The notes below the pieces were generated by a model that did no database searches, was not told the DNA's origin, and saw only the letters and a program-made list of their open reading frames with translations. Shown here piece by piece: positions 4,099-20,283 of a stretch of DNA of 20,283 bases. The first letter of the stretch is position 1, and each line of letters begins with the position of its first letter. The translations under genes and the position numbers were made by a program. Source of the DNA: a virus; the IMG/VR virus record IMGVR_UViG_3300032265_000498, positions 1 through 20,283 of that record; one strand, given 5' to 3'.

Positions 4099-5109
4099 AT
4101 GACAGATCAACAATTATTTGATGAAGCAGAGATAATAAAAAATGAAACTGAAAAAGGTGCTAATACAGCATCACGAGTAGGTCAAATGGTAGAAGATGTT
4201 ATTGTTAATAAAATAAACAATGATAAATTAGTAACAATAGTTACAGGTGCAAGTGATGCAAATATTCCAAGCGAAAAGGCGGTAAAAACTTATGTAGATG
4301 GTGCTTTGCCTACAACAACAGCAGGCGGAGATTTAACAGGTACTTACCCCAATCCTACACTTGCAGCAACAGCAGTTACAGCAGGTTCTTATACCAATGC
4401 AAATATCACAGTAGATGCTAAAGGTAGAATTACGGCAGCAGCTAATGGGAGTGGAGGAAGTGCATTTGATTATGAAAACTTATCGCTAACAGGAACAAGT
4501 AGTGGAACTGCTAATGTTTTAACAAAAACATATACAGATGTAGATTCCGCAGGGGGTAATTATTGTAAATTGCCATTATCTCCAACAGCAGGAGATACTA
4601 TTTATGTGTCAAATATAGATTCTTCAATGAATTTATTTGTGGTTGGGAATACAAGTCAATTTATTTCTATATCGGGTACGGCAAGTTTGGTTACGTCTTT
4701 TAATGCAGGCATATCTTCAAATCAAATATATGTATTTAAGGCTATATCTTCAACAATATGGAAATTATATATAACACCAAGTTACATATCACAAGAAAAG
4801 ACTTATAGGGTATATAGTGCTTTATTAACTCAAAGTGGAACATCTACTCCAATTGCAACAGTTTTGCAAAATGATTTGAGTGGCACAGTAGTTTGGACAA
4901 GGACGGGAGTTGGAGAATACAAAGCTACATTAGTATCTGCTTTTACGAACAATAAAACGGTATGTTTTATAAATAATGCAATACCTGACACACAACTGCA
5001 AGGATATCCTATTAGTGTAAATCAAATTGAATTAGACCAGCAAAATTTAACAGGAACGGCAATCGATGGTTTGTATGGCAATTGCATAGAAATAAGAGTA
5101 TATAATTAA
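4099..5109 (+). CDS. Phage fibre-type protein with [11 protein letters not shown] module
   Basis: The 336-residue product has a modular phage fibre make-up. An N-terminal part (about 1-45) resembles the attachment region of Bacteroidetes phage fibres (A-E-I-I-K-N-E-T...GANTASRVG). A segment with [11 protein letters not shown] follows, then [11 protein letters not shown] at 76-86 and [12 protein letters not shown] near 103-114. This repeat-like unit is very common in phage tail and head fibres. The C-terminal part (about 125-336) is Ser/Thr/Asn-rich beta sequence with GDTIYVSN and ends in EIRVYN. Such proteins usually form trimers and bind host surface glycans, but binding is not shown here. 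It starts 5 bases after the preceding stop. It is one of three fibre-type genes in the window, and its 3' end is echoed just downstream. Confidence 0.7.
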
Positions 5110-5196: not shown

Positions 5197-6039
5197 ATGG
5201 CACGTTCAATAGCAGAAATACAAGCGGCAATAATAGCAAATGTACAAGCAGATCCAAATCTTGTGCAAGCTGCTTCAACAAGCCAAACGGCAATATGGAG
5301 GTTGTGGACTTTTATTGTAGCCACAGCCATTGCCATATTAGAGCAGTTGCAAGATGTTTTTCAATCAAACAATGAAGCTATTATAAATTTAGCAGCACCA
5401 CAAACTGCTCAATGGGTACAAGATAAAGTTTTTAAATTTCAATACGATGCAACAACGCCACAAGTATTACAATTAATTGACTTAGTGCCACAATATTCAG
5501 TAACAGACGAAACGAAACGAATTGTAACACGTTGCAGCGTTACAAGCAATTTAACAAATAAAGTTTTAGTCAAAGTAGCAAAAGGAGCAACGCCACAAGC
5601 ACTTACTTCTCCCGAAGTTACGGCTTTACAAACTTATGTAAATACATTAGGAGTTGCAGGAATTAAATATGTTGTAAGTAGCACTAACAGCGACAAAATA
5701 TACATACAAGCACAAATATTTTTTGCTGGAGATTATTCTGCAATTATTCAAGCAAATGTTATTGCAGCAATTGAAATTTATTTAGGTTCTTTGCCTTTTA
5801 ATGGGACTTTAAAAATTAGTGATTTAGAAATTGCAATAAGAAATACAGAGGGTGTAAACGATGTTATTTTTAACAACATCAAAGCAAGGCGTGATGCAGA
5901 TGCTTTAAGTGCTGCAACATCATTAGTATTAAGTAACACAATAATAAGCAAGCAATGGGCAACAGTTGCAGGTTACATAGTAGGCGAAACAACAACAAGT
6001 AATACATTAGCAGACACTTTAATATTTATACCTGAGTAA
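5197..6039 (+). CDS. Baseplate wedge protein, J-like family (Mu gp47 / P2 gpJ)
   Basis: A 280-residue protein resembling baseplate J-like wedge proteins. The N-terminal helical part (about 1-75) is followed by beta-rich domains and a C-terminal helix-strand unit typical of the family: a regularly spaced AIIQANVIAAIEIYLGSLPF helix near 180-200, then LKISDLEIAIRNTEGVNDVIF. The xxIxxAIxxxxGVxDV pattern is the hallmark. In contractile tails these proteins form the wedge around the hub and link to the gp25-like protein and fibres. The gene overlaps the next by one base (TAATG). The location, before the head protease gene rather than after the spike, is unusual for a Mu-like order. Confidence 0.7.
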   Translation: MARSIAEIQAAIIANVQADPNLVQAASTSQTAIWRLWTFIVATAIAILEQLQDVFQSNNEAIINLAAPQTAQWVQDKVFKFQYDATTPQVLQLIDLVPQYSVTDETKRIVTRCSVTSNLTNKVLVKVAKGATPQALTSPEVTALQTYVNTLGVAGIKYVVSSTNSDKIYIQAQIFFAGDYSAIIQANVIAAIEIYLGSLPFNGTLKISDLEIAIRNTEGVNDVIFNNIKARRDADALSAATSLVLSNTIISKQWATVAGYIVGETTTSNTLADTLIFIPE

Positions 6040-6707
6040 TGGGATTTTTTGACATAAATTATAATCAAAAAACAGTTGAGTTATTGCCTCCCGATAAGAG
6101 AGGTAATAAGATGGTAGCGTGGGTTAAATCCTTGTTATCACAAGTGCAATATTGCCGTGATAAAATATTAGGGGATTATAAATTAGGGTCAAGTTATTCA
6201 GTTTGGGCAGCTGGAACTTATACCAAAGGGCAAAGAGTTATTTATGGGCAAAGTGTTTATGAATGTATAGTAGCTACAACAACATCAACTCCTACAACTG
6301 TAAGTGATTGGCGTGTATATTTACAATATTTTATAGGAGTAGATGAAAGGATAATGTATGACCATTTAAAGTTAACATTGGAATATGCTTTAAATAAAAG
6401 ATTTGGCACAACATTTAAGCAACCTCCATTGGTAAGTGATATTTATATTACAACCAATACACCTAATACAAATGTTTTTATAGTTGGATCAAATGAAAAT
6501 GAAAGTAGTATTGTTTATATTGGAAATAGTAATGAAGTTGTCATAGATAGTTATAGTTTTGCAATATTTAACAATTATACTATTTACATTCCATCTGCCG
6601 TTTATACAGCGTTGGGTTCAACGAGTAGTGAACGTGAAAGTACAGTTAGAAATTTTGCAGATAAATATAATACCATTGGTTTAAATTATAACATACAAAC
6701 TTATTAG
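6039..6707 (+). CDS. Baseplate/tail protein with a sugar-binding-like module
   Basis: The 222-residue product follows the J-like gene, the position of Mu gp48 / P2 gpI wedge proteins, and probably shares that role. Residues 1-48 form a helical N-terminus. Residues about 53-95 contain VWAAGTYTKGQRVIYG, then YEC and a final W91. The W-x2-G-x-Y-x2-G-x2-V-x2-G-x3-Y...P...W spacing resembles the small carbohydrate-binding (chitin-binding type 3 / CBM5-12-like) modules often found in phage tails. After it comes DERIMYDHLKLTLEYALNKRFG, then a beta-rich C-terminal part with many Asn and Ser. Role inferred from position. Coupled to neighbours by TAATG upstream and 3 bases downstream. Confidence 0.55.
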   Translation: MGFFDINYNQKTVELLPPDKRGNKMVAWVKSLLSQVQYCRDKILGDYKLGSSYSVWAAGTYTKGQRVIYGQSVYECIVATTTSTPTTVSDWRVYLQYFIGVDERIMYDHLKLTLEYALNKRFGTTFKQPPLVSDIYITTNTPNTNVFIVGSNENESSIVYIGNSNEVVIDSYSFAIFNNYTIYIPSAVYTALGSTSSERESTVRNFADKYNTIGLNYNIQTY

Positions 6708-6710
6708 AAA

Positions 6711-7544
6711 ATGAAAAAAATTGATTTATCAAATATTACTACTGCCGTTGGGATGCCGATAAAAAGCGGAGTTTTATCACATTTACAATCGGCTTATCAA
6801 GAGGTTATTGATGCTATTGTTAAAGGCAGCATAGGAGGCAGTTATGACCCAACAAAATATTATGTTTTGTATGGAGTTATTAATATAGGTGCTGGTACTG
6901 TATATAACACACAAATTACTGGTGGTGCTATTTTTCACAATGGAGAAATTTATTTATTAGATGATGTAGGGTTTAATGTTACTGGTTCAAATGTGGCTGT
7001 TGGCACAATTACAACATCATTCTTTAGTGGTGCAAATGCAGACCCTATAACCTTTACAGATAGCGTTGCAAGAAATGTTTTGCAAATTAGAAAAATTGTA
7101 TTTGCTAATGGAGCAAGCGGAAGCGGGGATGTTGATTTTGGAAGTTTAATTTATTCTATTTCAGATAAATTATTTGTAGGCACTACAGGCAATCCTTCTT
7201 TTCAGAATACTTGGGCAAATTATGCTTCAATACAAGCATTATTTTTTCAAAAAGATAAAACAAATTTAATCTTATCGGGCAAACTACAAGGGGGTACTTA
7301 CGCAACGGATAGCAGTATTATATTTACATTGCCAGTAGGATTTAGACCTGCAAGGCAATCTCAATTTTGTGCAAATGCTTCTTATCTATCTTCTTCAAAA
7401 TGGTACACAAATTCTTGCTCTATATTTGTTGCAACAAATGGGCAAGTTTCGATATTGATAGACGATACTTTTCTAACAGCTGCAAAAGCCGTTAGTTCAA
7501 ACTTTCCAACTATTGATATTTATGCAAATATTAGTTTATTATAA
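6711..7544 (+). CDS. Tail fibre / receptor-binding-type protein
   Basis: A 277-residue, Gly/Ser/Thr/Asn-rich, strand-rich protein directly downstream of the two wedge genes, where tail fibres usually lie. It has a helical N-terminus (about 1-40), a middle beta region, a linker, and a C-terminal beta-sandwich-like part with FTLPVGFRPARQ near 205-216. The LPxGxRP motif is common in phage fibre knob domains. No signal peptide and no enzyme motif were seen. It overlaps the next gene by one base (TAATG). The specific receptor cannot be judged. Confidence 0.6.
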   Translation: MKKIDLSNITTAVGMPIKSGVLSHLQSAYQEVIDAIVKGSIGGSYDPTKYYVLYGVINIGAGTVYNTQITGGAIFHNGEIYLLDDVGFNVTGSNVAVGTITTSFFSGANADPITFTDSVARNVLQIRKIVFANGASGSGDVDFGSLIYSISDKLFVGTTGNPSFQNTWANYASIQALFFQKDKTNLILSGKLQGGTYATDSSIIFTLPVGFRPARQSQFCANASYLSSSKWYTNSCSIFVATNGQVSILIDDTFLTAAKAVSSNFPTIDIYANISLL

Positions 7545-7750
7545 TGACCGAAAAGCGAACACATCCAAACAAAGTTACAGGATATTTAAAGCCAAAAAAT
7601 GATGCTTTATTTAGAGGCTTTGTCGCTGTAAATGAAGTAAGCAATAGTGAAGCTGTGAATATGATTGTTAAAGATTTTTTTAGTAGATTACCGCCTGAAC
7701 AAAAAATGGATTTTTTAAGTAAAGCGAGAACTCAAAATACTTTCGAGTAG
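7544..7750 (+). CDS. Small ribbon-helix-helix-like protein
   Basis: The 68-residue product looks like a ribbon-helix-helix (Arc/CopG-type) protein: a short strand (KVTGYL, residues 10-15), a helix (about 17-30), a turn with SNSEA (33-37) and a second helix running into IVKDFF (41-46). The SxSEA-N-hydrophobic pattern is typical of the second-helix start. Such proteins bind DNA as dimers through the strand. The C-terminal 20 residues are charged and probably extend the fold. It is the last gene before a strong terminator and sits 113 bases upstream of the next gene, so it could regulate the following transcription unit. A structural role is not excluded. Confidence 0.6.
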   Translation: MTEKRTHPNKVTGYLKPKNDALFRGFVAVNEVSNSEAVNMIVKDFFSRLPPEQKMDFLSKARTQNTFE

Positions 7751-7780
7751 TTTTTTTTCATAGGCAGATTTTTTGTTTTT

Positions 7781-7813
7781 AACCTCTGGCGTTTCTACGT
7801 TGGAGGTTTTTTT
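7781..7813 (+). terminator. Rho-independent terminator
   Basis: Bases 7781-7792 pair with 7797-7808 in a 12-base-pair stem (three G-U pairs in the middle) around the loop TTCT, followed by a T-run at 7807-7813. It lies 30 bases after the stop of the ribbon-helix-helix gene and closes the first transcription unit. Two further T-rich stretches (7751-7758 and 7770-7780) precede it. Between here and the start at 7864 I see no convincing TTG / TAnnTTTG promoter pair, although one is expected functionally. Confidence 0.85.
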
Positions 7814-7863
7814 GTACCCCATAATTAAAAAAACATTAAAACATCAAATAAATTGCACTCAGA

Positions 7864-8976
7864 ATGGAATATATCTATACCATAAATGCAGATGCAGAAG
7901 AGCCAATAATGCTAATAAACAAGCATATTGGAAGCGATGATGTTGAGGGGCAAGGCGTTGATGGTTCTATATTTATGCAAGAACTTTTAGCATTAGATTC
8001 TTTGAATAAAAAGCGAATACAAATTTGGATTAATTCGCCCGGAGGAATTGTAATGGATGGCTACAATATTTATTCTGCCATTTTAAAAACAAAAACCAAA
8101 GTTGATACATATTGCATTGGCATTGCAGCAAGTATAGCAGCGGTAATATTTCAAGCAGGTCGTAACCGTTGTATGGCAGATTATAGCCTTTTAATGTATC
8201 ACAACCCATACGGAGGCGATAGTGTAGAGTTAAAGAAAATGCGTGAAAGCATTGCCGTAATGATAGCAGAAAGAAGCGGTAAAAGTGTTGAAGCGGTGTT
8301 GAAAATAATGGATAAAACAACGTGGATGACTGCAACAGAGGCAAAACAATTAGGGTTTTGTGATGACATTGAGGAAAGTGCAAATTACAACGTTAAACAC
8401 GGAAACGCTAAGGCAATGTGGGACGCTGGTAAGGTAATGGCAAATAGTTTCATTAATCAAAATAAAAATTCAAGTAAAATGACAAATGTTGCAAACAAAC
8501 TCGGACTTATAGCCGATGCAAACGAAGATTCTATTGTTGCTGCAATCAATGCTTTACAAAACAAAGCTAAAAGCGATAGCGAAACAATGAAAAAAATGGA
8601 AGACGATTACGCTGAAGCAAAAGCTAAATTAGGCGAAATGGAGGACAAAATGAACGCCTTCAAAAAGAAAGCAGAGGAAGCGGACGAAGACAAGAAAAAA
8701 GCCGAAGACGAAGCTAAAGCAGCCAAAGCAAAGAATATGATTGACGGATTTGTAAAAATCGGTAAAATCAAAAATGAAAGTGTTGAAAAATGGACTGCTA
8801 AAGCAATTGCAGACTTTGACGGCACAAAAGAGTTGCTTGAGGAATTGCCTGTAAACGGTAAAGCTCCAGTAATGAATAGCATTACAGGGGGTGCAGATGC
8901 AAACGCTGAAAAGTTGCAAACAATGGTTATTGCTAACGCAATGAATGAAATCCGTAACAAGATTGAAACAAAATAA
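7864..8976 (+). CDS. ClpP-like head maturation protease fused to scaffold domain
   Basis: A 370-residue protein with an N-terminal ClpP-type (S14) serine protease and a C-terminal scaffold. The catalytic triad appears as S90 in IAASIAAV, H113 in MYHNPYG and D167 in GFCDD, matching the order and context of ClpP Ser, His, Asp. The oxyanion region is NSPGG (57-61). From about residue 206 the sequence becomes a Lys/Glu/Ala-rich coiled coil (about 235-290) and a C-terminal helical region, typical of capsid scaffolds cleaved during head maturation. Position immediately before the major capsid gene fits. An in-frame ATG at 8479 (M206) in an AAGTAAAATG context could start a separate 165-residue scaffold, as in lambda C/Nu3. 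Confidence 0.9.
   Translation: MEYIYTINADAEEPIMLINKHIGSDDVEGQGVDGSIFMQELLALDSLNKKRIQIWINSPGGIVMDGYNIYSAILKTKTKVDTYCIGIAASIAAVIFQAGRNRCMADYSLLMYHNPYGGDSVELKKMRESIAVMIAERSGKSVEAVLKIMDKTTWMTATEAKQLGFCDDIEESANYNVKHGNAKAMWDAGKVMANSFINQNKNSSKMTNVANKLGLIADANEDSIVAAINALQNKAKSDSETMKKMEDDYAEAKAKLGEMEDKMNAFKKKAEEADEDKKKAEDEAKAAKAKNMIDGFVKIGKIKNESVEKWTAKAIADFDGTKELLEELPVNGKAPVMNSITGGADANAEKLQTMVIANAMNEIRNKIETK
8479..8976 (+). CDS. Possible separate scaffold protein from internal in-frame start
   Basis: The ATG at 8479 lies in frame inside the protease gene, exactly where the protease domain ends and the scaffold part starts (MTNVANKLGL). Its upstream bases (CAAGTAAA) closely resemble those of the major capsid gene (CTAAGGTAAA before the ATG at 9003). 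Use of this start would give a 165-residue coiled-coil scaffold without protease. Nested protease/scaffold genes are known from lambda (C/Nu3) and Mu (I/Z). This is an inference from domain boundary and start context. Confidence 0.35.
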   Translation: MTNVANKLGLIADANEDSIVAAINALQNKAKSDSETMKKMEDDYAEAKAKLGEMEDKMNAFKKKAEEADEDKKKAEDEAKAAKAKNMIDGFVKIGKIKNESVEKWTAKAIADFDGTKELLEELPVNGKAPVMNSITGGADANAEKLQTMVIANAMNEIRNKIETK

Positions 8977-9002
8977 TTAAATCACAATTAAACTAAGGTA
9001 AA

Positions 9003-10046
9003 ATGTCAGAAGCATTAAACATTACAGATACCTCGTGGAGTGGTCCTGCTGCGAGTTATATGATTACTCGTGCAGTAGTTGCTGCCGATACAATTCAAAA
9101 GGGCTGCATTTACGTTGAAGATGGTATTCGCAAAAAGAAAACTATCCCTCGTATTGAAGTTTCAAATTTTATGCAAAAACGTACTGCAACTCCTGTGAGT
9201 AAAGGTACTGTTGATGTGGATGGCAGAGTGTTAACTCCTGCTGATTTGATGCTTTATTATGAGTTCAATCCTCGTGATTACGAACAGCATTTTTACGCTG
9301 AACAATTGCAACCTAAGTTATTAGGTCGTGAGTTACCGGTTAACGCTGAGAACTTTATGATGATGCAAACAATGAAGCGTTTAAATGAGTTTTTTGAAAA
9401 CGCTATTTGGAGAAGCCGTGTACAATATGACCCAACAGGGGATGCGGTTGACCCAACAACAAAAGGCGAAGCTGCAAGCGGTTCACCTTTTTATGATACA
9501 GACGGATTGCCTGCATTATTCTATTTTGATGGTATTATCAAAAAAGGATTAGATGCTGCCGATACTATCAAAGTATCAAGTCCTGCAACGTTGGTAGCTG
9601 GTACTGCTGGTGGCGGTCAAGAAAACATAGGCGATGCGTTTTTACGTTGTTTAAATTCAGTTCCAAAAGCATTGTTATTTAAGTATGGTGCAGCTGGGTT
9701 AAAGTTTCACGTTAGCTACGCAACAAAATTGATTTTTGAAGAGTGGTTAACCACTACTGCGGTATTCAAAAACAACAACTTTACAGAACAAGGTCAAAAC
9801 CTTTACAAAGGGTACACAGTAGCACCTTTGGCTGGTATGCCTGATAATACTATTGTGGTTTGTATCTCTAAGCCTGATGTTGATTCTAACCTTTGGTTAG
9901 GTATTAACTCAACAGAGGACAACCAATTGCAATTGATGAGACTGCAAAACAATAGTGAATTGTTCTTCGTAAAAGGATTGTTCAAAATGGATACGCAAAT
10001 AGGTTTTGCAGATCAATTGGTTATTTACACAACCATCACAGCTTAA
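9003..10046 (+). CDS. Major capsid protein (HK97-fold expected)
   Basis: A 347-residue protein directly downstream of the protease/scaffold gene, the universal place of the major capsid protein. The make-up fits the HK97 fold: an N-terminal arm, a long charged helix-rich region (about 95-145, with LNEFFENAIWRS), an insertion, and a C-terminal beta region with LKFHVSYATKLIFEEW and a final strand (DQLVIYTTITA). Length fits a capsid subunit. The start at 9003 has AAGG at 8995-8998, one of the few Shine-Dalgarno-like sites here, consistent with high expression. I cannot name the subfamily. The expected cleavage site by the protease is not evident by eye. Confidence 0.8.
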   Translation: MSEALNITDTSWSGPAASYMITRAVVAADTIQKGCIYVEDGIRKKKTIPRIEVSNFMQKRTATPVSKGTVDVDGRVLTPADLMLYYEFNPRDYEQHFYAEQLQPKLLGRELPVNAENFMMMQTMKRLNEFFENAIWRSRVQYDPTGDAVDPTTKGEAASGSPFYDTDGLPALFYFDGIIKKGLDAADTIKVSSPATLVAGTAGGGQENIGDAFLRCLNSVPKALLFKYGAAGLKFHVSYATKLIFEEWLTTTAVFKNNNFTEQGQNLYKGYTVAPLAGMPDNTIVVCISKPDVDSNLWLGINSTEDNQLQLMRLQNNSELFFVKGLFKMDTQIGFADQLVIYTTITA

Positions 10047-10057
10047 TTATTAACTTG

Positions 10058-10079
10058 GTAGCCCTTAGGGGCTACTTTA
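10058..10079 (+). terminator. Hairpin terminator after major capsid gene
   Basis: GTAGCCC at 10058-10064 pairs perfectly with GGGCTAC at 10069-10075 around a 4-base loop, followed by TTTAT. It begins 11 bases after the capsid stop. The T-run is short, so it may be a partial terminator that lowers read-through after the capsid gene. Confidence 0.55.
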
Positions 10080-10095
10080 TAAAAATTTATTTAAA

Positions 10096-10524
10096 ATGAA
10101 AAAATTATTATTTGTTTTATTTTTTGCCTTAATTGGCTTAGTGAGTAATGCACAAAAGACTACACCAAGATTTGGCACAGTAGCAGGAGATGATAATACA
10201 GGACGTGTATTAACGTACAAGTACATTAACGCTACGGATGCTGCTGGTGCTGATAGCCTTTATTTAGTGCCTTGCAATTGGAAAACAATTGTAAGAATTG
10301 CATTGACTGATAGCTTTTCACTTAAAAACCCAAGCATTGTAAAATCTTATGCAGGCGATAATATATTAATTATTGCAAGCGGAGCAAGTGGGAAAAAATT
10401 AAAATTTGTCGGTTCAAATTGGTTATCAACAGGAACAGCAACTTTATCGAGTGTAGGTCGTGCCGTTATTCAATTAGTGTTTGACGGTTCAAAATGGGTT
10501 GAAGTAGATAGAACAGTACAATAG
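10096..10524 (+). CDS. Protein with Sec signal peptide, between capsid and tail genes
   Basis: The 142-residue product starts with MKKLLF, a hydrophobic core of about 12 residues (LFVLFFALIGLV) and a likely signal peptidase I site after SNAQ (residue 20), the common Bacteroidetes form. The mature 122 residues are beta-rich with one Cys and no recognised enzyme motif. The C-terminal part (ILIIASGASGKKLKFVG... then VFDGSKWVEVDR) resembles the last strand region of phage fibre or decoration proteins. It sits alone between two terminators (10058-10079 and 10534-10562), like a moron gene. Options are an exported host-altering protein, or a head decoration protein whose N-terminus only looks like a signal peptide. 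No clear promoter was seen in the 49-base gap before it. Confidence 0.75.
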   Translation: MKKLLFVLFFALIGLVSNAQKTTPRFGTVAGDDNTGRVLTYKYINATDAAGADSLYLVPCNWKTIVRIALTDSFSLKNPSIVKSYAGDNILIIASGASGKKLKFVGSNWLSTGTATLSSVGRAVIQLVFDGSKWVEVDRTVQ

Positions 10525-10533
10525 TATTTAACT

Positions 10534-10562
10534 AAAAAGGGCTGCTAATTGTAGCCCTTTTT
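10534..10562 (+). terminator. Rho-independent terminator
   Basis: Bases 10534-10545 (AAAAAGGGCTGC) pair with 10551-10562 (12 pairs, one G-U) around the loop TAATT. The right arm ends in TTTTT and the left arm begins with AAAAA, so it could act on both strands. It lies 9 bases after the stop of the signal-peptide gene and shares the GTAGCCC core with the hairpin at 10058-10079. Confidence 0.85.
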
Positions 10563-10576
10563 ATAAACCAAATTTT

Positions 10577-10807
10577 ATGAACATTGAAATAATTAAAAAA
10601 GCAGTTGCAGGGTTACCTCACGTAAAAACGGTATGGGTAGAGGGTAACAATGTTTTTATTCACGAAAAAAAAGGTGCTGAGAAAGTAGAATTAGAAACTA
10701 TTGCAGCACAACCAAGTGAACCAGTTGTACCGGTTACAGAACCAGCAGCACAACCAAGTGAACCAGTTGCAAAAGCGGACACAACATCTACTAACAAGAA
10801 AAAATAA
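10577..10807 (+). CDS. Small acidic/Pro-rich protein with internal repeat, unknown function
   Basis: A 76-residue protein I do not recognise. The first 40 residues look like a small folded beta-alpha unit (IEIIKKAVAGL, then TVWVEGNNVFIHEKK). The rest is a disordered-looking tail with two copies of AAQPSEPV separated by VPVTEP, ending in a lysine run. The repeat is exact at DNA level. It lies between the terminator and the tail sheath gene, 5 bases before the sheath start, so it is probably co-transcribed with the tail genes. Functions such as head-tail completion or a small virion component are possible but not shown. Confidence 0.65.
   Translation: MNIEIIKKAVAGLPHVKTVWVEGNNVFIHEKKGAEKVELETIAAQPSEPVVPVTEPAAQPSEPVAKADTTSTNKKK
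10703..10769 (+). repeat. Two exact 25-base direct repeats, period 42
   Basis: The same 25 bases (starting GCAGCACAACC, ending CCAGTTG) occur at 10703-10727 and 10745-10769, both in the same reading frame and both encoding AAQPSEPV. The exact identity suggests a recent tandem duplication in the linker of the small protein. Confidence 0.9.
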
Positions 10808-10812
10808 TTACA

Positions 10813-12336
10813 ATGGCACTAAATGACATAGTATTCGTTAAAGGGCAAGGGGGCTTAGGCAGACCAGCACAAGGCGAAGATTTTATAAGTGGTTTATTGC
10901 TATATTCTGACGATTTACCAAGTGGCTTTGATTCATCACATAGGGTTAGACCTGTATTAAGTGTTGCACAAGCTGAATCATTGGGAATTGTAAACGATTA
11001 TAGCGATGGTACTGCACCAACAGGTAGTATATATTTTGATAACATTGGCGATGACGGAGACTATGTAAATGTTCAAGTTGCCGAAATTAACGGAGTTATT
11101 GATTTAGGTACTTATGTAAAAAGCCCTGCTGAAAGTACATATTTGCAACAAGTGCAAGCGTTAGCTGCTGTAATTAATGCGGGTACTTATAAACACGGAT
11201 ATACGGCAGTTGGTGCTGGTACTCTTTGTACTATAACAGCACCTAAAAGAAATGGTATTTTCTTAAATACAGGAACGCCTATAACAGTAACAACAAATCC
11301 GGGTGCTACAATTGCAGTTGATATGGTTGTGGTTCAATTTTCAGGTGGTATATATAGCAAACTTGCTTTATATCATTACCACGTTAGCGAGTTTTTTAGA
11401 TTAAACCCAACAGGCAAGTTATTCATTGGAATTTACGCTCCTACAATGGGGTATAATTTTGAAGAACTAACATTATTGCAAACGGCAGCAGGTGGCAAAT
11501 GTAGACAAATTGCTATTTATCATTTAGAAAATAGTTTAGATTCTACAAACATTACAGCTATACAAAGTGTTTGTAACACAAACGCCTCCAATCATAAACC
11601 TTTTAGCGTTCTTTATGGTGCAGATTTAATGGGTGCAGACTTATCTAGTGATTTAACAAATTTGCAGACATTAACTGCTTCAAATGTAAGTGCAATCATT
11701 AGTCAAGACTTTGGCGGTTTAGGTGGTTATTTGTACAAGCATTGTGGTCGTTCTATAACAAACATTGGAGCGTTAGCAGGTTCTGTTAGTGCTGCAAAAG
11801 TAAGTACAGATATTGCGTGGGTTGCAAACTTTAACATCTCAAACGGTGTAGAATGTGATACTGTAGGTTTTTCAAACGGTCAATTGCTTAATGAAATATC
11901 ACAGCAATTACTAAATCAATTGGACGATTACAGATACATATTTCTAATTAAGTATGTAGGTGTGAATGGTACATATTGGAATGATAGCCACACAGCTATT
12001 ACAATTGCAAGCGATTACGCTTATATTGAAAACGTTAGAACTATTGATAAGGCAATTAGAGGAGTTTATTCTACATTAATACAAGACTTAAACAGCCCTT
12101 TAAAACTTAATGCAGATGGAACTTTAACAGATGCAACAGTAGCATATTTTGAAAGCGAAGGCGGTTTGCCTTTAGCACAAATGGCAAGGGATAGCGAATT
12201 AAGTGCTTACTCTGTTATTGTTGATCCAACGCAAAACGTTTTATCTACAAGCAATCTAAATGTTACAGTAAAATTATTGCCGATAGGTGTTGCAAGACAA
12301 ATCACCGTAAATATTGGCTTCACAACTAAAATTTAA
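10813..12336 (+). CDS. Tail sheath protein (DUF2586-like)
   Basis: A 507-residue protein that fits a contractile tail sheath. The N-terminus begins with a short strand and a glycine-rich loop (GQGGLGRPAQGE). A long alpha/beta middle with SIYFDNIGDDGDYVNVQVAE follows. The C-terminal domain ends in VNVTVKLLPIG-like strands (TSNLNVTVKLLPIGVARQ) and a final ITVNIGF strand that donates to the neighbouring subunit in known sheaths. I associate it with DUF2586, found in many Bacteroidetes phages. Sheath proteins contract to drive the tube through the host envelope. Its neighbour is the tube gene, 6 bases downstream, as in other myoviruses. Confidence 0.75.
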   Translation: MALNDIVFVKGQGGLGRPAQGEDFISGLLLYSDDLPSGFDSSHRVRPVLSVAQAESLGIVNDYSDGTAPTGSIYFDNIGDDGDYVNVQVAEINGVIDLGTYVKSPAESTYLQQVQALAAVINAGTYKHGYTAVGAGTLCTITAPKRNGIFLNTGTPITVTTNPGATIAVDMVVVQFSGGIYSKLALYHYHVSEFFRLNPTGKLFIGIYAPTMGYNFEELTLLQTAAGGKCRQIAIYHLENSLDSTNITAIQSVCNTNASNHKPFSVLYGADLMGADLSSDLTNLQTLTASNVSAIISQDFGGLGGYLYKHCGRSITNIGALAGSVSAAKVSTDIAWVANFNISNGVECDTVGFSNGQLLNEISQQLLNQLDDYRYIFLIKYVGVNGTYWNDSHTAITIASDYAYIENVRTIDKAIRGVYSTLIQDLNSPLKLNADGTLTDATVAYFESEGGLPLAQMARDSELSAYSVIVDPTQNVLSTSNLNVTVKLLPIGVARQITVNIGFTTKI

Positions 12337-12342
12337 TAAGAT

Positions 12343-12756
12343 ATGATACCTTTAATTAATGGCATAAATTACAGTTGGGCAAATATCACATTAACACTTT
12401 TTGGAGTGCCAGTTGTGGGAATTACTAAAATTGAATACAAGCGTAAACAGAAAAAAGAAAATAACTACGGTGCAGGTTCACAGCCTACAAGTCGAGGTTA
12501 TGGCAACTATGAATATGAGGGTAGCATTGAATTGTACGTTGACGAATGGAAGCGTATCATTGCTTCAAGTCCGGGTCGTGACCCGTTAGCAATTGCTCCT
12601 TTTCCTATTACAGTTGTTTTTTCAGGTGCTGGAATTACAGCTGAAAAAGATGTTTTGCAAAGTGTTGAATTTATGGAAGATCCATTAACGGCAAATCAAG
12701 GGGACACAAAATTAATGGTAACAATTCCATTAATTATTGGTGCAATTGATAAATAA
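12343..12756 (+). CDS. Tail tube protein
   Basis: The 137-residue product fits a contractile-tail tube protein: beta-rich with a central helix (about residues 64-76, VDEWKRIIA) after a loop (NYGAGSQPTSRGYG), and strands around ITVVFSG and LMVTIPLIIG. A YEYEGSIELYV strand and the closing hydrophobic strand are typical of tube folds. Gene order supports it: sheath before, tail assembly chaperone and tape measure after. Length is in the usual range (about 120-170). I recognise the pattern and position, not a named family. Confidence 0.75.
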   Translation: MIPLINGINYSWANITLTLFGVPVVGITKIEYKRKQKKENNYGAGSQPTSRGYGNYEYEGSIELYVDEWKRIIASSPGRDPLAIAPFPITVVFSGAGITAEKDVLQSVEFMEDPLTANQGDTKLMVTIPLIIGAIDK

Positions 12757-12766
12757 CCTATTTTTG
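12737..12766 (+). promoter_or_regulatory. Candidate Bacteroidetes promoter upstream of tail chaperone gene
   Basis: TTG at 12737-12739 and TATTTTTG at 12759-12766 are separated by 19 bases. This matches the Bacteroidetes -33/-7 pattern (TTG, TAnnTTTG). A start near 12773 would leave a leader of about 10 bases before the ATG at 12783. AT-rich sequence makes chance matches common, so confidence is low. Confidence 0.25.
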
Positions 12767-12782
12767 TCGTAAATTATTTTTT

Positions 12783-13118
12783 ATGACAGAACAAGAAATA
12801 CAAGCAAAAGCGGATGAACTAAGCATTAGAGAACAATGTAAGGTTCATCCGTTGGTGTTTAAAGCCGAGGGCGAAGAAGAACAAGTTGTTGGGTTTATAA
12901 AAGAACCTCCAAGGTTTGTTAAACTTCGTGTAATGGATAAGGCTATGAATGCACCTATGACAAGTGCAGCGGAGGTTGTAGATGGGTATTTATTGAAAGC
13001 TGATAGCGATAGTCGTATTTACGATGAAAAGCCTGAAAACGATAAGTATTATTTAGGTGCTGTTTGGGAGGCTTACAACTTAATCTCGATGTCAATTAAT
13101 CAGTTTAAAAAAAAATAG
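12783..13118 (+). CDS. Tail assembly chaperone, short form (gpG-like)
   Basis: The 111-residue product lies between the tail tube and the tape measure, where tailed phages place the tail assembly chaperone. It is a small, charged, mixed alpha/beta protein with a Lys-rich end. The zero-frame stop (TAG 13116-13118) comes directly after nine consecutive A at 13107-13115. This resembles the G form of lambda G/GT and Mu gp41/gp42-type chaperones, which bind the tape measure protein during tail assembly. The second form reads on through a -1 frameshift and is listed separately. A candidate promoter lies just upstream. Confidence 0.75.
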   Translation: MTEQEIQAKADELSIREQCKVHPLVFKAEGEEEQVVGFIKEPPRFVKLRVMDKAMNAPMTSAAEVVDGYLLKADSDSRIYDEKPENDKYYLGAVWEAYNLISMSINQFKKK

Positions 13119-13285
13119 CTGAGGCAATTATTGACGATTCGGCTTGTGATGCGATAACGGAGTGGGAAAGTTTAATACAATTTTATTTTCACGTTGACCC
13201 CGACACTTTGGATGAGGATAAATTTGCAAGGTATGTAGGCAGATTAAAATATGCTTTAAAGAAAACAAATCAATGGAGTAATTAA
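13115..13285 (+). CDS. Frameshift extension of tail assembly chaperone (T part of GT-like product)
   Basis: This stretch is open in the -1 frame for 56 codons and ends with TAA at 13283-13285, which overlaps the tape measure ATG. It has no ATG, and the frame is closed upstream by TAA at 13106-13108, so it can only be reached by slipping inside 13107-13115 (A AAA AAA in the zero frame). Joined to the upstream gene it would give 167 residues. The extension (IAEAIIDDSACDAITEW..., ...RYVGRLKYALKKTNQWSN) is helical and Trp-containing. A -1 shift here is the known chaperone mechanism in tailed phages. Transcriptional slippage on the A9 run would give the same product. Not verified experimentally. 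Confidence 0.75.
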   Translation: MAEAIIDDSACDAITEWESLIQFYFHVDPDTLDEDKFARYVGRLKYALKKTNQWSN

Positions 13286-14913
13286 TGGCAGCAGAAAAAG
13301 TAGAATATGAGTTATCGCTTAAAGATTTGCTTAGTGGCAAAATTAAAGAAGCTGATAGCAATGCAAGGCAACTTGACGGAACTATGTCAACACTGCAAGG
13401 CACTATTGGAAAAGTAGGGGCTGCTATTGGTATTGCTTTTGGGTTAAGTGCGATTAAAGATTTTGGGATGTCAATGATTGCAGCAGGTACAACTGTTGAA
13501 AATGCACAAACAGGATTAACAACTTTATTAAAAGATAGTAATGAGGCTTCGGGTGTTATTAAAAACACTATGGAAGATGCAACAAAAACTCCATTTGCAT
13601 TTGAGGGGTTATTAGCTGCCAATAAAGCCTTAATTAGTGCAGGTGTTGAATCAAAACAAGCAAGAGAAGATGTTTTAAATTTATCAAACGCAATTGCAGC
13701 AACAGGCGGAGGTGATGTTGAATTGCAAAGAATGGTTGTAAATTTACAACAAATTAAAAATGCTGGTAAGGCAACCGCATTAGACATTAAGCAATTTGCT
13801 TATGCAGGCGTTAATATTTACAAAGTTTTAGCCGATGCAACGGGACAACCAATATCCAAAGTAAAGGATATGGAAATAAGCTATGATAATTTAACTATGG
13901 CTTTGAAAAAAGCACACGCTGAGGGAGGTATTTATTATCACGGATTAGAAAATATGGCAGGAAATACAAGTGTTCAAATATCTAATTTGGGCGATGCTAT
14001 GTTTCAGCTAAAAAACAAAATGTTTACTGATTTAAAACCTGCTATTACCGCAACCATACAAACATTATTTGAGTTTATTGATAAATTAAAACAAGGATGG
14101 GAGTGGGTCAAAAGAAACCAAGATACAATAGTGCCGCTTGCCAAAACAGTTGGTAGTTTATGGTTGGCTTTTAAAGGGGCTTCAATACTGCAAGGTGTAA
14201 CATCGGCACTTAGTGGATTAATACCCGTTTTAGTTGGCACGGCGGAAGCAACAACAGCATTTCAAGCAGCAATGACTTTAGCACTTGGGCCAGTTGGGTT
14301 ATTAGTTGCAGCATTGGGAACTTTGGCATTTGCTTACTATTCAGCAGGTGAAGCAGAAAAGAATTTGCAAAGGGTTCACGATGAATATGCAAGTGTTGTC
14401 GGTGGTTATGAAGAGGAAACTATTGATAAGTTAATAAGCAAATATGAAAAGTTAGGCAAAACAAGAGAAGATGCTTTGCTTTGGTCTTTGTTAGAAGAAA
14501 AAAAGAAAATACAGGAAGAGTTAGAACCATTGGAAAGGCGTTTGGTTAGTATGCAGCAAGAGGAGAATAATAGCTTTTGGTTTCAATCACTATCACATAC
14601 AGAGGCTCAAAAAGAGAAATTGGAGGGGGATATTGAAACTTTAAAAGCTAGATTAGCAACAACTGCTACATATACAGGTAAAAGCAAAGTTGCTAAAACA
14701 AAAGGCAATCACGACGAACCAGTAAAAGACCTTGCACCAAAAGGGGCAACAGGTCAAAAAGTAGTAACTATTAATATTTCAATTGCAAAAATGATTGAAA
14801 CATTTAAAATATCAACGGCAAACATTCAAGAAAGCAGCAGCAAGGTTAGAGAATTGGTAGCACAAACTTTATTGAGTGCTGTAAATGATAGTCAAATAAC
14901 CGCAGGAATATAA
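13285..14913 (+). CDS. Tail tape measure protein
   Basis: A 542-residue protein with the tape measure domain in its first half: a helical N-terminus, hydrophobic stretch about 41-57, TGLTTLLKD at about 76-84, TPFAFEGLLAANKALISAG at 102-120, and NLSNAIAATGG. Hydrophobic helices lie about 328-353, and a Lys/Glu coiled coil follows (about 400-470). Tape measures set tail length, threading the tube lumen and being ejected with DNA. At the usual 0.15 nm per residue, 542 residues would give a tail near 80 nm (an inference). No lysozyme or peptidase motif was seen. The start overlaps the frameshift extension's stop, and the stop overlaps the next gene's ATG by one base. Confidence 0.85.
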   Translation: MAAEKVEYELSLKDLLSGKIKEADSNARQLDGTMSTLQGTIGKVGAAIGIAFGLSAIKDFGMSMIAAGTTVENAQTGLTTLLKDSNEASGVIKNTMEDATKTPFAFEGLLAANKALISAGVESKQAREDVLNLSNAIAATGGGDVELQRMVVNLQQIKNAGKATALDIKQFAYAGVNIYKVLADATGQPISKVKDMEISYDNLTMALKKAHAEGGIYYHGLENMAGNTSVQISNLGDAMFQLKNKMFTDLKPAITATIQTLFEFIDKLKQGWEWVKRNQDTIVPLAKTVGSLWLAFKGASILQGVTSALSGLIPVLVGTAEATTAFQAAMTLALGPVGLLVAALGTLAFAYYSAGEAEKNLQRVHDEYASVVGGYEEETIDKLISKYEKLGKTREDALLWSLLEEKKKIQEELEPLERRLVSMQQEENNSFWFQSLSHTEAQKEKLEGDIETLKARLATTATYTGKSKVAKTKGNHDEPVKDLAPKGATGQKVVTINISIAKMIETFKISTANIQESSSKVRELVAQTLLSAVNDSQITAGI

Positions 14914-15572
14914 TGAGTACATTAGATAATATAAACCAACAATTACATATCGTTGCTAATACAGCAGGGTTAATACGTGCTTTTAATTTAAAAAATGTTC
15001 ACGTTCCTGATGCAAGGGATAACAAATACAATCCAAACACCATTAATAGCAACCCTGCAAATTCAGCAGACATTAAATTAAACACTCCGCAAAACCAATA
15101 CAACGAAAATTTATTAGGTACACCAATATTTGCCGACCTTACACTTAATGGGGGAACTTACTATGACAACTTACTAAAAAAAGATGTTACGTTCCCAACT
15201 ATAAGATTTGCAACGGTTATAATGACGGTTGATTTTGTTGCAAGGATTATAAAAACTGAAATACAAGGGCGTGATGGAAGTGTCCCCGAATATATTGGGC
15301 AAGATGATGCTAAAATAGCAATACAAGGCGTTATTGCAGGTTACAACGGGCACTACCCACAAAACGAAGTAAACTTATTGAATTTGTGGCGAAAAGCTCC
15401 CGTAGCCAAAGCTGTTACATCTACATTCCTCAATCAAACTTTAGGTATTAATAGCATAATAGTTGAAGATTGTAGTTTCCCGCAAGTTGCAGGTGGTTAC
15501 AGTTACCAAACATTTACAATGAATTGTTTTAGTACAAGACCAGTTGAATTAAAGATAGCGAATAATGTTTAG
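14913..15572 (+). CDS. Baseplate-associated protein (DUF6046-like)
   Basis: The 219-residue product lies between the tape measure and hub genes, where contractile phages place a baseplate hub-tube adaptor (Mu gpN/gp43 or LysM-like position). The N-terminal 90 residues are variable and Asn-rich. From about residue 95 a conserved-looking core follows: FPTIRFATVIMTVDF, then KTEIQGRDGSVPEYIGQDD, an alpha/beta unit, and a final strand (YQTFTMNCFSTRP). I associate the core with DUF6046, seen in Bacteroidetes phages. Function is inferred from position. It overlaps the next gene by 8 bases. Confidence 0.55.
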   Translation: MSTLDNINQQLHIVANTAGLIRAFNLKNVHVPDARDNKYNPNTINSNPANSADIKLNTPQNQYNENLLGTPIFADLTLNGGTYYDNLLKKDVTFPTIRFATVIMTVDFVARIIKTEIQGRDGSVPEYIGQDDAKIAIQGVIAGYNGHYPQNEVNLLNLWRKAPVAKAVTSTFLNQTLGINSIIVEDCSFPQVAGGYSYQTFTMNCFSTRPVELKIANNV

Positions 15573-17905: not shown

Positions 17906-18440
17906 AGCAGTTAGCGGACAAAGTTTAGCAGACGTATGTATGAACACTTACGGATCAATGGATTATTTTGTTAAGTTATTACAAGATAATAATATTGCTA
18001 ATGCTAATCAATTACCATACACAGGGCAGCAGTTTAAATGGGATGAAACGCTTGTAAAAGATGGATTAGTGCAAATTTCAACGGCAAATGGTAATATTAA
18101 ATATGCCACAAGTGCCGATAGTAACAATAACACATTCTATATTGTTGGGGGTACTCCTACAGCATATCAACCACAAGCACCAAGCGGAGGGTCTGCATTG
18201 CCAGTAGGTTATTATCAAAAAACTTCATCAACAAGCTACACAGCAACGGCAGACGGAGAAACTGTAATAACATTGATTGCTTTACAAGGAAAAGATATTT
18301 TGCAAATAGAAAGAGAAATAAAACCTTTAACTACAACAGAGTTTATATTTAATAAAGCAAATGGGGTACTAACTTTGCAAAATAGTTTGTCGGTTGGAGA
18401 AACTTTATTTATTTTGTATCAAGAAATTATTAAACCGTAA
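17892..18440 (+). CDS. LysM-type tail protein (gpX-like N-terminus)
   Basis: The 182-residue product has an N-terminal LysM-like region (about 4-54): FKAVSGQSLADVCMNTYG, then DYFVKLLQDNNIANANQLPYTGQQF, matching the LysM pattern of GDTLxxIAxxxYG...LxxxN. LysM-type tail proteins (P2 gpX) act in the baseplate or hub. The C-terminal 120 residues are Ser/Thr-rich and beta-rich with a closing strand region (LSVGETLFILYQE), a pattern often seen near fibre attachment. The ATG at 17892 lies inside the preceding gene, and a later start would cut the LysM motif. Its stop overlaps the next ATG by one base. Confidence 0.65.
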   Translation: MLIFKAVSGQSLADVCMNTYGSMDYFVKLLQDNNIANANQLPYTGQQFKWDETLVKDGLVQISTANGNIKYATSADSNNNTFYIVGGTPTAYQPQAPSGGSALPVGYYQKTSSTSYTATADGETVITLIALQGKDILQIEREIKPLTTTEFIFNKANGVLTLQNSLSVGETLFILYQEIIKP

Positions 18441-20283
18441 TGAGAATTATATTTATTTTACTATTATTTATTAATGGCGTTGCACATTCGCAAACTTGGA
18501 CTCCGATTGCGGGTAAACAACGTTTTACAAATGGATTAGGATTACCAACTAAAGACACTACATTAGGAACTATTGCAGATAGTTCTCAATTAATTATTCG
18601 TCCTTTGGATAGTGCATTATGGTTTAAGTATAAAAGTGTGTGGCAAAAAGTAGGGGGAAGCAATGGAAATACTGTTAAAAGCGTTAAATTAACAACTCCA
18701 ACAGGATTAACGACAACAGGATCGCCAATAACTGATACAGGAACATTAGCAATAACTTATTCAAGTGGATATTCATTGCCAACTACGGCATCGCAAAGTT
18801 TATGGGATGCAGCTTATACAGCAAGAATAACAACAGCAAATGCCCCTTTGTCAATTAATAGCAATACTATTAGAATTGATACTGCAACAAGATTTACAGG
18901 TGTTGCAACCTTGGGCAAGGCTTACAATGATAGTTTAGTTTTATCGGCTGCAATTGCAACTAAGGTGAATAAAGCAGATTCAATAGCGGGTGGGTACTAT
19001 CCTTATTCAAGCAATCCGAAAGGATATTTAACAACAGTAACTACCCCCACTTTAAATCAAGTATTGACGGCAGGAAATACATCAACACAGCCAATAGCAA
19101 TTACTAATGGAACAGGAATATCTGTTACTAATGGCAGTCAAACTTCATATCAACAACCTAATCAATTTTTATTGAAAGGGACAACATATCAAGGTTCTTT
19201 ATCATCGGCTACATTATTTAGTAATCAAATATGGACTTTCCCAAATAATACAGGAACAGTTGCACTTACAAGCGATATAACAGGGGGTACTGTAACAAGT
19301 GTTGCAACAGGATTAGGTTTATCAGGTGGTACAATTACAGCCACAGGAACATTATTAGTTGATACATCTTCTGCATCTATTTTATCAAGACAAAGGGCTG
19401 CTGCTACTTATGCTCCTATTTCAATAAATGGCACAGTTACGAGTGTAGCAAGAACAAACGGATTAGGTATTTCGGCAAGTGTAGCAAATTCAACAACAAC
19501 GCCAAATATCACAATAGCAGTAGATACAAGTGATGCAAGTATATTAAGTAGACAAAGAGCATCAGCGACTTATTTAACATCATCAACAGCAGCAGCAACA
19601 TACCTACCATTAACAGGAGGTACTTTATCAAGTAGGCTTACAGGGACATCATTAATTTTAAATAAAGATTCATTGCCAACTGTTACCGGCAAAACTTGGG
19701 GGCTAGTAATAGATACGGGTAATAGTAATAGAATTTCGAGACAAATATTGCCAACAGCAACAGGAACTGTAACAAGTATTACTTTAGGTCGTGGCATAAC
19801 AGGTAGCTCACCAATTACAACAACAGGAACAATAGGCATAGATACTTCAAAAAATTACACTTGGACTGGTGGTAATAATACATTCAATACCCAAATAACA
19901 ACTCCTTTAATTGTAGGTGGTACCACTTCAACAAGTGGCGTTACTATTCAAACAACATCAGCAGCAACAGGTATAAATCCAAATGATTTCAATGTACAAT
20001 GTAAAACAGGCTCTACTTTATACACAGCTTTAACTGTTACAGGCACAACAGGAAATATAGGTACTTATGGAATTGTTGGGTTGGGAACTAACTTTAGAAT
20101 AACAGGATCAAGCACAAGTAGTTTATTTCAATGCTATGCAGGAGCAACTTATTTAGGACAATGGGGAACATCAGGATTCGTAATGTCAACAAAAGCATCT
20201 GTGTTCTATAACGGCAATCCTACTGCTAACTTACACATAGGAGCTGGAAGTTCAAGTGCAAGTGGTTCACCTTTTAAAATAAC
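18440..20283 (+). CDS. Large fibre-like protein with signal peptide, cut at window end
   Basis: An ATG at 18440 (TAATG overlap) opens at least 614 codons to the window edge without a stop. The N-terminus is a clear Sec-type signal peptide: MR, a hydrophobic core (IIFILLLFI), then AHSQ near residue 18. The rest is Thr/Ser/Gly-rich with fibre-type repeats: NTVKSV at residue 77 and GTVTSV-type units at 283, 331 and 442, each followed by a glycine-rich run and T-x-T-G-T-L, some ending in DTS. SILSRQRA-A/S-ATY occurs at 313-324 and 367-378, and YLPLTGGTL follows, a common tail-fibre motif. Such proteins usually form trimeric fibres. A signal peptide on a virion fibre is odd. It may be a host-type surface protein, or the segment may not be cleaved. 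Confidence 0.7.
   Translation, partial: MRIIFILLLFINGVAHSQTWTPIAGKQRFTNGLGLPTKDTTLGTIADSSQLIIRPLDSALWFKYKSVWQKVGGSNGNTVKSVKLTTPTGLTTTGSPITDTGTLAITYSSGYSLPTTASQSLWDAAYTARITTANAPLSINSNTIRIDTATRFTGVATLGKAYNDSLVLSAAIATKVNKADSIAGGYYPYSSNPKGYLTTVTTPTLNQVLTAGNTSTQPIAITNGTGISVTNGSQTSYQQPNQFLLKGTTYQGSLSSATLFSNQIWTFPNNTGTVALTSDITGGTVTSVATGLGLSGGTITATGTLLVDTSSASILSRQRAAATYAPISINGTVTSVARTNGLGISASVANSTTTPNITIAVDTSDASILSRQRASATYLTSSTAAATYLPLTGGTLSSRLTGTSLILNKDSLPTVTGKTWGLVIDTGNSNRISRQILPTATGTVTSITLGRGITGSSPITTTGTIGIDTSKNYTWTGGNNTFNTQITTPLIVGGTTSTSGVTIQTTSAATGINPNDFNVQCKTGSTLYTALTVTGTTGNIGTYGIVGLGTNFRITGSSTSSLFQCYAGATYLGQWGTSGFVMSTKASVFYNGNPTANLHIGAGSSSASGSPFKI
19361..19573 (+). repeat. Two protein-level repeats in fibre-like gene
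   Basis: DTSSASILSRQRAAATY (19361-19411) and DTSDASILSRQRASATY (19523-19573) match at 15 of 17 residues, but the DNA has diverged: three shared serines use TCT or TCA in the first copy and AGT in the second. They belong to the GTVTSV-type fibre repeat units. Confidence 0.85.

What the first reader, a model, noticed from the sequence alone, without database searches (positions are those of the whole stretch)
10058..10562. Moron-like gene with signal peptide between two terminators
A 142-residue protein with a typical Bacteroidetes signal peptide (cut after SNAQ) is encoded between the capsid and tail genes, with a hairpin terminator on each side sharing the GTAGCCC core. Virion proteins normally stay in the cytoplasm during assembly, so a signal peptide suggests export by the host, for example to change the envelope or block superinfection. 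Alternatively it is a decoration protein with a membrane-like N-terminus.
Basis: partly seen in the sequence, partly recalled or inferred. Interest (0 to 1): 0.6.

Follow-up and report, generated by a model that had tools for sequence, protein, structure and literature searches.

The report
Exported capsid-locus appendage protein
A small phage gene next to the capsid gene encodes an appendage-type protein with a genuine, conserved export signal and sugar-attachment motifs, which suggests that these phages send some particle-type proteins through the host's secretion and glycosylation route; it is a regular part of the particle gene block, not a stray add-on gene.

Summary
The 142-aa ORF, its signal peptide and both hairpins are real. 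The 'moron' reading is not supported. A homologue sits between the capsid and sheath genes in 62 of 66 distinct MCP-anchored loci from related phages, usually packed against its neighbours, and 12 of 13 long contigs carry no integrase.

At that locus the gene occurs in two versions with the same predicted fold: one with a signal peptide (36) and one starting almost exactly at the mature N-terminus (26). They alternate about 12 times on the capsid tree. The fold matches virion attachment domains (T4 gp9/gp10, CBA120 TSP4, Pa223 capsid spike). Two rare versions carry extra fibre-like sequence.

The signal-peptide version conserves two Bacteroidota O-glycosylation sequons (D-S/T-hydrophobic); the other version lacks both at those sites. 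The same holds at the distal-fibre locus: signal-peptide fibres have 103 sequons against 32 expected, others 19 against 23.5. Two MS-confirmed virion proteins of Cellulophaga phage phi39:1 also carry such signal peptides.

Best reading: an appendage-type protein exported by Sec, cut before Gln and probably O-glycosylated. Whether it then joins released virions or acts on the envelope is unproven.

The parts
10096..10152 (+). Sec signal peptide MKKLLFVLFFALIGLVSNA, cleavage predicted before Gln20
   Evidence: invariant Q20 with A/G/S before it in 21 aligned sequences; pN/pS 0.27 in close pairs, many not independent; Q rule PMC10367356
10153..10521 (+). mature 123-residue beta domain, virion-attachment-type fold
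   Evidence: AlphaFold2 pLDDT 83; matches to TSP4, T4 gp10, KP1 baseplate, Pa223 capsid spike, Z 7.5-9.2; same neighbours for the signal-less homologue
10252..10260 (+). sequon 1 D53-S54-L55 (mature D34)
   Evidence: D 46/47, S/T 47/47 in the signal-peptide clade; signal-less homologues have A-[AS]-T or similar here
10309..10317 (+). sequon 2 D72-S73-F74 (mature D53; extended motif)
   Evidence: D 47/47, S 46/47; signal-less homologues have TGA[LM] here; motif definition
10057..10076 (+). hairpin after the capsid gene, probable attenuator/terminator
   Evidence: similar hairpins with other sequences in both versions of the locus
10533..10563 (+). hairpin with U-run after the gene
   Evidence: z -5.3; mainly in the window's close relatives
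9003..10046 (+). major capsid protein gene (neighbour, anchor of the locus)
   Evidence: PHROG head protein match; Hankyphage p00 annotated MCP relative
10577..10807 (+). 76-aa gene between this gene and the sheath gene, conserved neighbour
10813..12336 (+). tail sheath gene (DUF2586)
18440..20281 (+). distal fibre-like protein (cut by the window end), second Q-rule signal peptide MRIIFILLLFINGVAHS|Q
   Evidence: 6 sequons vs 2.5 expected

Best explanation
The gene is a swappable appendage gene of the head-tail block: a small beta domain of the kind phages use to attach fibres and spikes to the particle. In this phage and many relatives it carries a Sec signal peptide, so the protein is exported, cut before Gln20 and held in the periplasm, where host O-glycosylation probably decorates D-S/T sites. 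At lysis it is released together with the virions and most likely binds to them, giving a glycan-bearing surface; the distal fibre of the same phage appears to take the same route. Shown by sequence: locus conservation, the two versions, signal peptide conservation, the sequon pattern. Inferred: actual export, glycosylation, and joining the virion after export.
For: Locus: protease-MCP-X-(76-aa gene)-sheath order; X present in 62 of 66 distinct MCP-anchored loci, 36 with and 26 without signal peptide, 4 absent. Same family: profile comparison E 1.9e-30. Fold of both versions: virion attachment domains. L045 and L052 versions carry a Gly-rich linker and extra C-terminal sequence. Signal peptide. 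Sequons: X clustered below 60% identity, 41 vs 12.8 expected with signal peptide, 8 vs 6.4 without; all ORFs, 140 vs 43.1 with signal peptide, 227 vs 207.8 without, N- and E-controls not enriched; fibre locus 103 vs 32.4 against 19 vs 23.5. Bacteroidota glycosylate this motif in non-cytoplasmic proteins (PMC12871550). Precedent: phi39:1 gp25 and gp26 have AAQ/YGQ signal peptides and the record marks them as virion proteins by MS/MS.
Against: No direct proof of export, glycan or virion location. An exported protein cannot take part in assembly in the cytoplasm, so post-lysis attachment must be assumed. phi39:1 gp25/gp26 have almost no sequons (1 and 0), so glycosylation is not general. The sequon-rich form is largely one clade of X, so common ancestry explains part of the pattern; L056 has a signal peptide and no sequon, L033 one only at its N-terminus, L101/L104 one at another place. 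Signal peptides were called by a simple rule, not SignalP.
Confidence: 0.5

Rival explanations
1. The exported form is not a virion part but acts on the host envelope: it sits in the periplasm or on the surface and blocks superinfection or masks receptors on cell debris. The appendage fold was re-used for this.
For: Export is the simplest meaning of a conserved Q-rule signal peptide; authors of PMC10367356 suggest outer-membrane modification for Q-rule phage proteins of unknown function.
Against: Fixed place in the structural block; alternates with signal-less homologues of the same fold under closely related capsids; attachment-type fold; mostly no integrase; no lipoprotein Cys and no evident outer-membrane targeting (sequence).
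Confidence: 0.25
2. The signal-like N-terminus is not used for export: it is a hydrophobic peptide removed by the prohead protease or buried in the particle, and the protein is an ordinary capsid decoration assembled in the cytoplasm.
For: PMC10367356 proposes prohead-protease cleavage for capsid proteins with predicted signal peptides; capsid-position proteins of Flavobacterium phages lotta8-1 and FPSV-S1 also start with hydrophobic stretches.
Against: The SPase I pattern with small residue then invariant Q and sequons that track the signal peptide in two unrelated genes fit passage through the periplasm.
Confidence: 0.15
3. A true moron: an independently transcribed cargo gene inserted between structural genes.
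For: Hairpins on both sides in the window and its close relatives.
Against: Present in nearly all relatives at the same place, tightly packed in most, no promoter consensus, no integrase in 12 of 13 contigs.
Confidence: 0.06

Closest known systems
T4 gp9/gp10-type attachment domains (also CBA120 TSP4 anchor domains, Klebsiella KP1 baseplate, Pa223 capsid spike)
   Same: same predicted fold over about 90 residues, Z 6.9-9.4 in the X models
   Different: those are parts of large virion proteins, without signal peptides as far as I know (general knowledge); X is a lone small domain at the capsid locus; sequence identity 9-18%
Q-rule signal-peptide proteins of Porphyromonas gingivalis phages (PMC10367356)
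   Same: phage-encoded SPase I substrates exposing N-terminal Gln
   Different: described there as genes of unknown function in prophages; X is a fixed gene of the head-tail block with a signal-less counterpart
Cellulophaga phage phi39:1 gp25 and gp26
   Same: Q-type signal peptides on fibre- and lyase-type proteins that the record marks as virion parts by MS/MS
   Different: tail-end genes, unrelated in sequence, almost no sequons
Bacteroidota O-glycoproteins (PMC12871550, PMC8729774)
   Same: exported proteins with D-S/T-hydrophobic sequons
   Different: host proteins with proven glycans; no glycan shown here
Phage morons / superinfection exclusion proteins
   Same: small exported phage protein, hairpins on both sides
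   Different: not sporadic, no own promoter found, part of the structural block

Membership tests
Moron | sporadic presence between otherwise adjacent genes | tested here: not met
   62 of 66 distinct MCP-anchored loci hold a homologue; absent in L105, L106, L116, L117 and in Flavobacterium phage lotta8-1
Moron | own promoter | tested here: inconclusive
   no Bacteroidota-type promoter match near the gene; sigma-70 consensus matches are below chance and none lies just upstream
Moron | own terminator | tested here: met
   strong hairpin at 10533-10563, but lacking in most relatives
Moron | carried by a temperate phage and expressed in the lysogen | tested here: inconclusive
   no integrase in 12 of 13 long contigs and no rve transposase in 13; contigs may be incomplete
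SPase I substrate of the Bacteroidetes Q-rule type | charged start, hydrophobic core, small residue then Gln | tested here: met
   alignment of 21 sequences; no lipobox Cys
Virion attachment domain (T4 gp9/gp10 type) | fold | tested here: met
   top matches stand above unrelated rows; predicted models only
Virion attachment domain (T4 gp9/gp10 type) | presence in the virion | not testable with these tools
   needs virion proteomics
Bacteroidota O-glycoprotein | D-S/T-[AILVMT(SGFC)] sequon in a non-cytoplasmic protein | tested here: met
   two conserved sites, enrichment 3.2-fold; non-cytoplasmic location is predicted, not shown
Bacteroidota O-glycoprotein | attached glycan | not testable with these tools
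   needs glycoproteomics
Superinfection exclusion protein | protects the host against related phage | not testable with these tools
   needs expression in a laboratory host

The most novel reading that the evidence does not exclude
Tailed phages of Bacteroidota make some virion appendages by a secretory route: capsid-locus and distal-fibre proteins are exported by Sec, O-glycosylated by the host in the periplasm, and attached to particles at or after lysis, so that virions wear host-type glycans. Phages switch between secretory and cytoplasmic versions of the same appendage.
Probability: 0.3. Interest if true: 0.9.

Novelty: new variant of a known kind. Interest (0 to 1): 0.62.

Why it matters
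Tailed-phage particles are thought to be built wholly in the cytoplasm. If appendage proteins are exported and glycosylated first, then part of the virion is finished outside the cytoplasm, and host glycans on virions could affect receptor binding and stability. Since one gene locus exists in exported and non-exported versions, the question can be tested directly.

Tried and rejected
PHROGs and Pfam gave no family for the protein. tblastn against 50,697 phage records found no relative of it, of the signal-less form or of the fibre N-terminus; the L004 relative gave only two partial, weak matches. PDB sequence search: nothing convincing. The terminator scan found no excess over shuffles and missed both hairpins, probably because of its T-run rule. 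I considered that D-S pairs are only structural turns: the signal-less homologues keep the fold without them, which speaks against it. I considered a missed upstream start in the signal-less genes: the gaps to the capsid gene are 4-82 bases and in-frame readings show no signal peptide. The -1 and +1 counts are circular because the rule demanded [AGS]Q; the alignment is not. The X-tree change count of 4 includes L032, whose signal peptide my pattern missed. Lotta8-1 gp46 as an MS-proven fibre: the record notes similarity only and it has no signal peptide. The C-terminal part of the L045 version resembles that of window gene 4099-5109 only weakly (E 0.005). Of 396 genomes of the Chitinophagaceae MAG's family, 7 gave a match, and only two were more than marginal.

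Full report
What is there. The window is a fragment of a Mu-like, contractile-tailed phage (Portal_Mu, Phage_Mu_F, DUF2586 sheath) held as a virus record. The ORF at 10096-10524 encodes 142 residues with a signal peptide, between the capsid gene and a 76-aa gene that precedes the sheath gene. Both hairpins are real; the second is strong (z -5.3), the first modest (z -2.6). Their shared core is a coincidence of this phage: in the 97% relative the second hairpin has another sequence.

The signal peptide is genuine. Relatives were found through motifs of the mature part. All those with an intact start have a charged start, a hydrophobic core and a small residue before an invariant Gln. In Bacteroidetes, signal peptidase I exposes an N-terminal Gln (Q rule, PMC10367356), so the cut is SNA|Q, not after SNAQ. 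In close pairs pN/pS is 0.27 in the signal peptide and 0.19 in the mature part, so the region is kept by selection; many of the pairs are not independent.

It is not a moron. In the first set of loci that reach both neighbours, the order protease-capsid-X-sheath recurs in all but the distant L004/L033 phage. To avoid bias I anchored a second search on the capsid protein. Among 66 distinct informative loci, 36 have X with a signal peptide, 26 have X without it, and 4 lack X. The signal-less proteins start with Met almost at the mature N-terminus (M[PA]RFG...DNTGRVL) and have no signal peptide in the reading frame upstream. Both versions are one family (profile E 1.9e-30). On the capsid tree the state changes about 12 times (quick tree, a third of the forks unresolved), whereas on the X tree it changes about three times. 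So the locus exchanges whole X genes under similar capsids. Twelve of 13 long contigs show no integrase and none an rve transposase.

What it is built like. AlphaFold2 models of both versions are good (pLDDT 83 and 84) and give the same neighbours: CBA120 TSP4 anchor domains, Solidus gp83 tailspike, T4 gp10 or gp9, Klebsiella KP1 baseplate, Pa223 capsid spike, with Z up to 9.4. The fold also occurs in secreted bacterial proteins (6o38 and 4dny in the same lists), so it does not prove a virion role. In L045 and L052 the domain is followed by a Gly-rich linker and extra fibre-like sequence, and one signal-less relative matches a tail-fibre PHROG. Place, fold and fusions together point to a head or neck appendage.

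Sequons. The Bacteroidota O-glycosylation motif is D-S/T followed by A/I/L/V/M/T, extended to S/G/F/C, in non-cytoplasmic proteins (PMC12871550; PMC8729774). In the signal-peptide clade two such sites are nearly invariant (mature D34: 46/47; D53: 47/47). In signal-less homologues the aligned positions read like AAT/AST and TGA[LM]. With sequences clustered below 60% identity, motif counts are 41 against 12.8 expected from shuffles with the signal peptide, and 8 against 6.4 without. Because ancestry could explain this within one family, I looked at other genes. In the window and 20 related contig stretches, ORFs with a Q-type signal peptide hold 140 motifs against 43.1 expected, other ORFs 227 against 207.8; N-S/T and E-S/T controls are not enriched. 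At the distal-fibre locus, fibres with the signal peptide have 103 against 32.4, fibres without it 19 against 23.5 (L088 left out because its signal peptide lies behind a doubtful start). These fibres are partly related to each other, so the effective number is smaller than ten.

Can an exported protein be in the virion? Cellulophaga phage phi39:1 gives a precedent: gp25 (MRKLILFFGLIFCLEMAA|Q) and gp26 (MKNFIYLVLLFFSVASYG|Q) are marked in the record as virion proteins by experimental MS/MS. No such signal peptide is on the MS-marked proteins of phi46:1 or of the part of phi13:1 that I read. gp25 and gp26 have almost no sequons, so the two traits are separable.

Mechanism. Most likely the protein is exported by Sec, cut before Gln20, probably glycosylated at the two sites, and released at lysis together with virions, to which it may then bind. 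Export is well supported by sequence; glycosylation is a reasonable inference; binding to virions after export is the weakest step. The main rival is an envelope function such as receptor masking or superinfection exclusion; it remains open. My rough probabilities: genuine export signal 0.85; appendage family 0.75; glycosylated 0.55; joins virions after export 0.35.

Limits. No SignalP was available; signal peptides outside the X family were called by a simple rule. Counts depend on IMG/VR contigs, many short. No experiment on this phage exists in the material I could read.

Noticed in passing
window 18440-20281: Second protein with a Q-type signal peptide: a long fibre-like protein, cut off by the window end; relatives at the same locus come with and without the signal peptide.
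   Followed up: yes
L037:4838-5920 and L040:3829-4926: Capsid-position proteins of Flavobacterium phages lotta8-1 and FPSV-S1 begin with long hydrophobic, signal-like stretches (MKTRLSLKKITFNMAFAFILGILFASPAFA...; MKKLSLKRVLLNFVIAAFIGIIAAS...).
   Followed up: partly
L151:16625-20172 (phi39:1 gp25, gp26): Two proteins marked as virion parts by MS/MS carry Q-type signal peptides; their existing MS data could be re-searched for processed N-termini.
   Followed up: partly
L002:2212-2448: A 78-aa predicted lipoprotein (MKKIILAVIVLITACKKQDK...) between two structural genes of the closest relative, missing in the window: a better moron candidate than the gene reported.
   Followed up: no
L091:5501-6281 and L096:5457-6502: Tandem duplicates of the gene; in L096 both copies have signal peptides and one holds a long insert.
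   Followed up: no
L004:3348-5390: A distant relative (30%) with signal peptide lies right after an unrelated capsid-like gene, in a phage that also has a decoration-like gene upstream of it (naming of these two neighbours is from inspection, not tested).
   Followed up: partly
L144 (downstream stretch of the L115 contig) 5857-15111: Six ORFs with Q-type signal peptides clustered after the tail genes.
   Followed up: no
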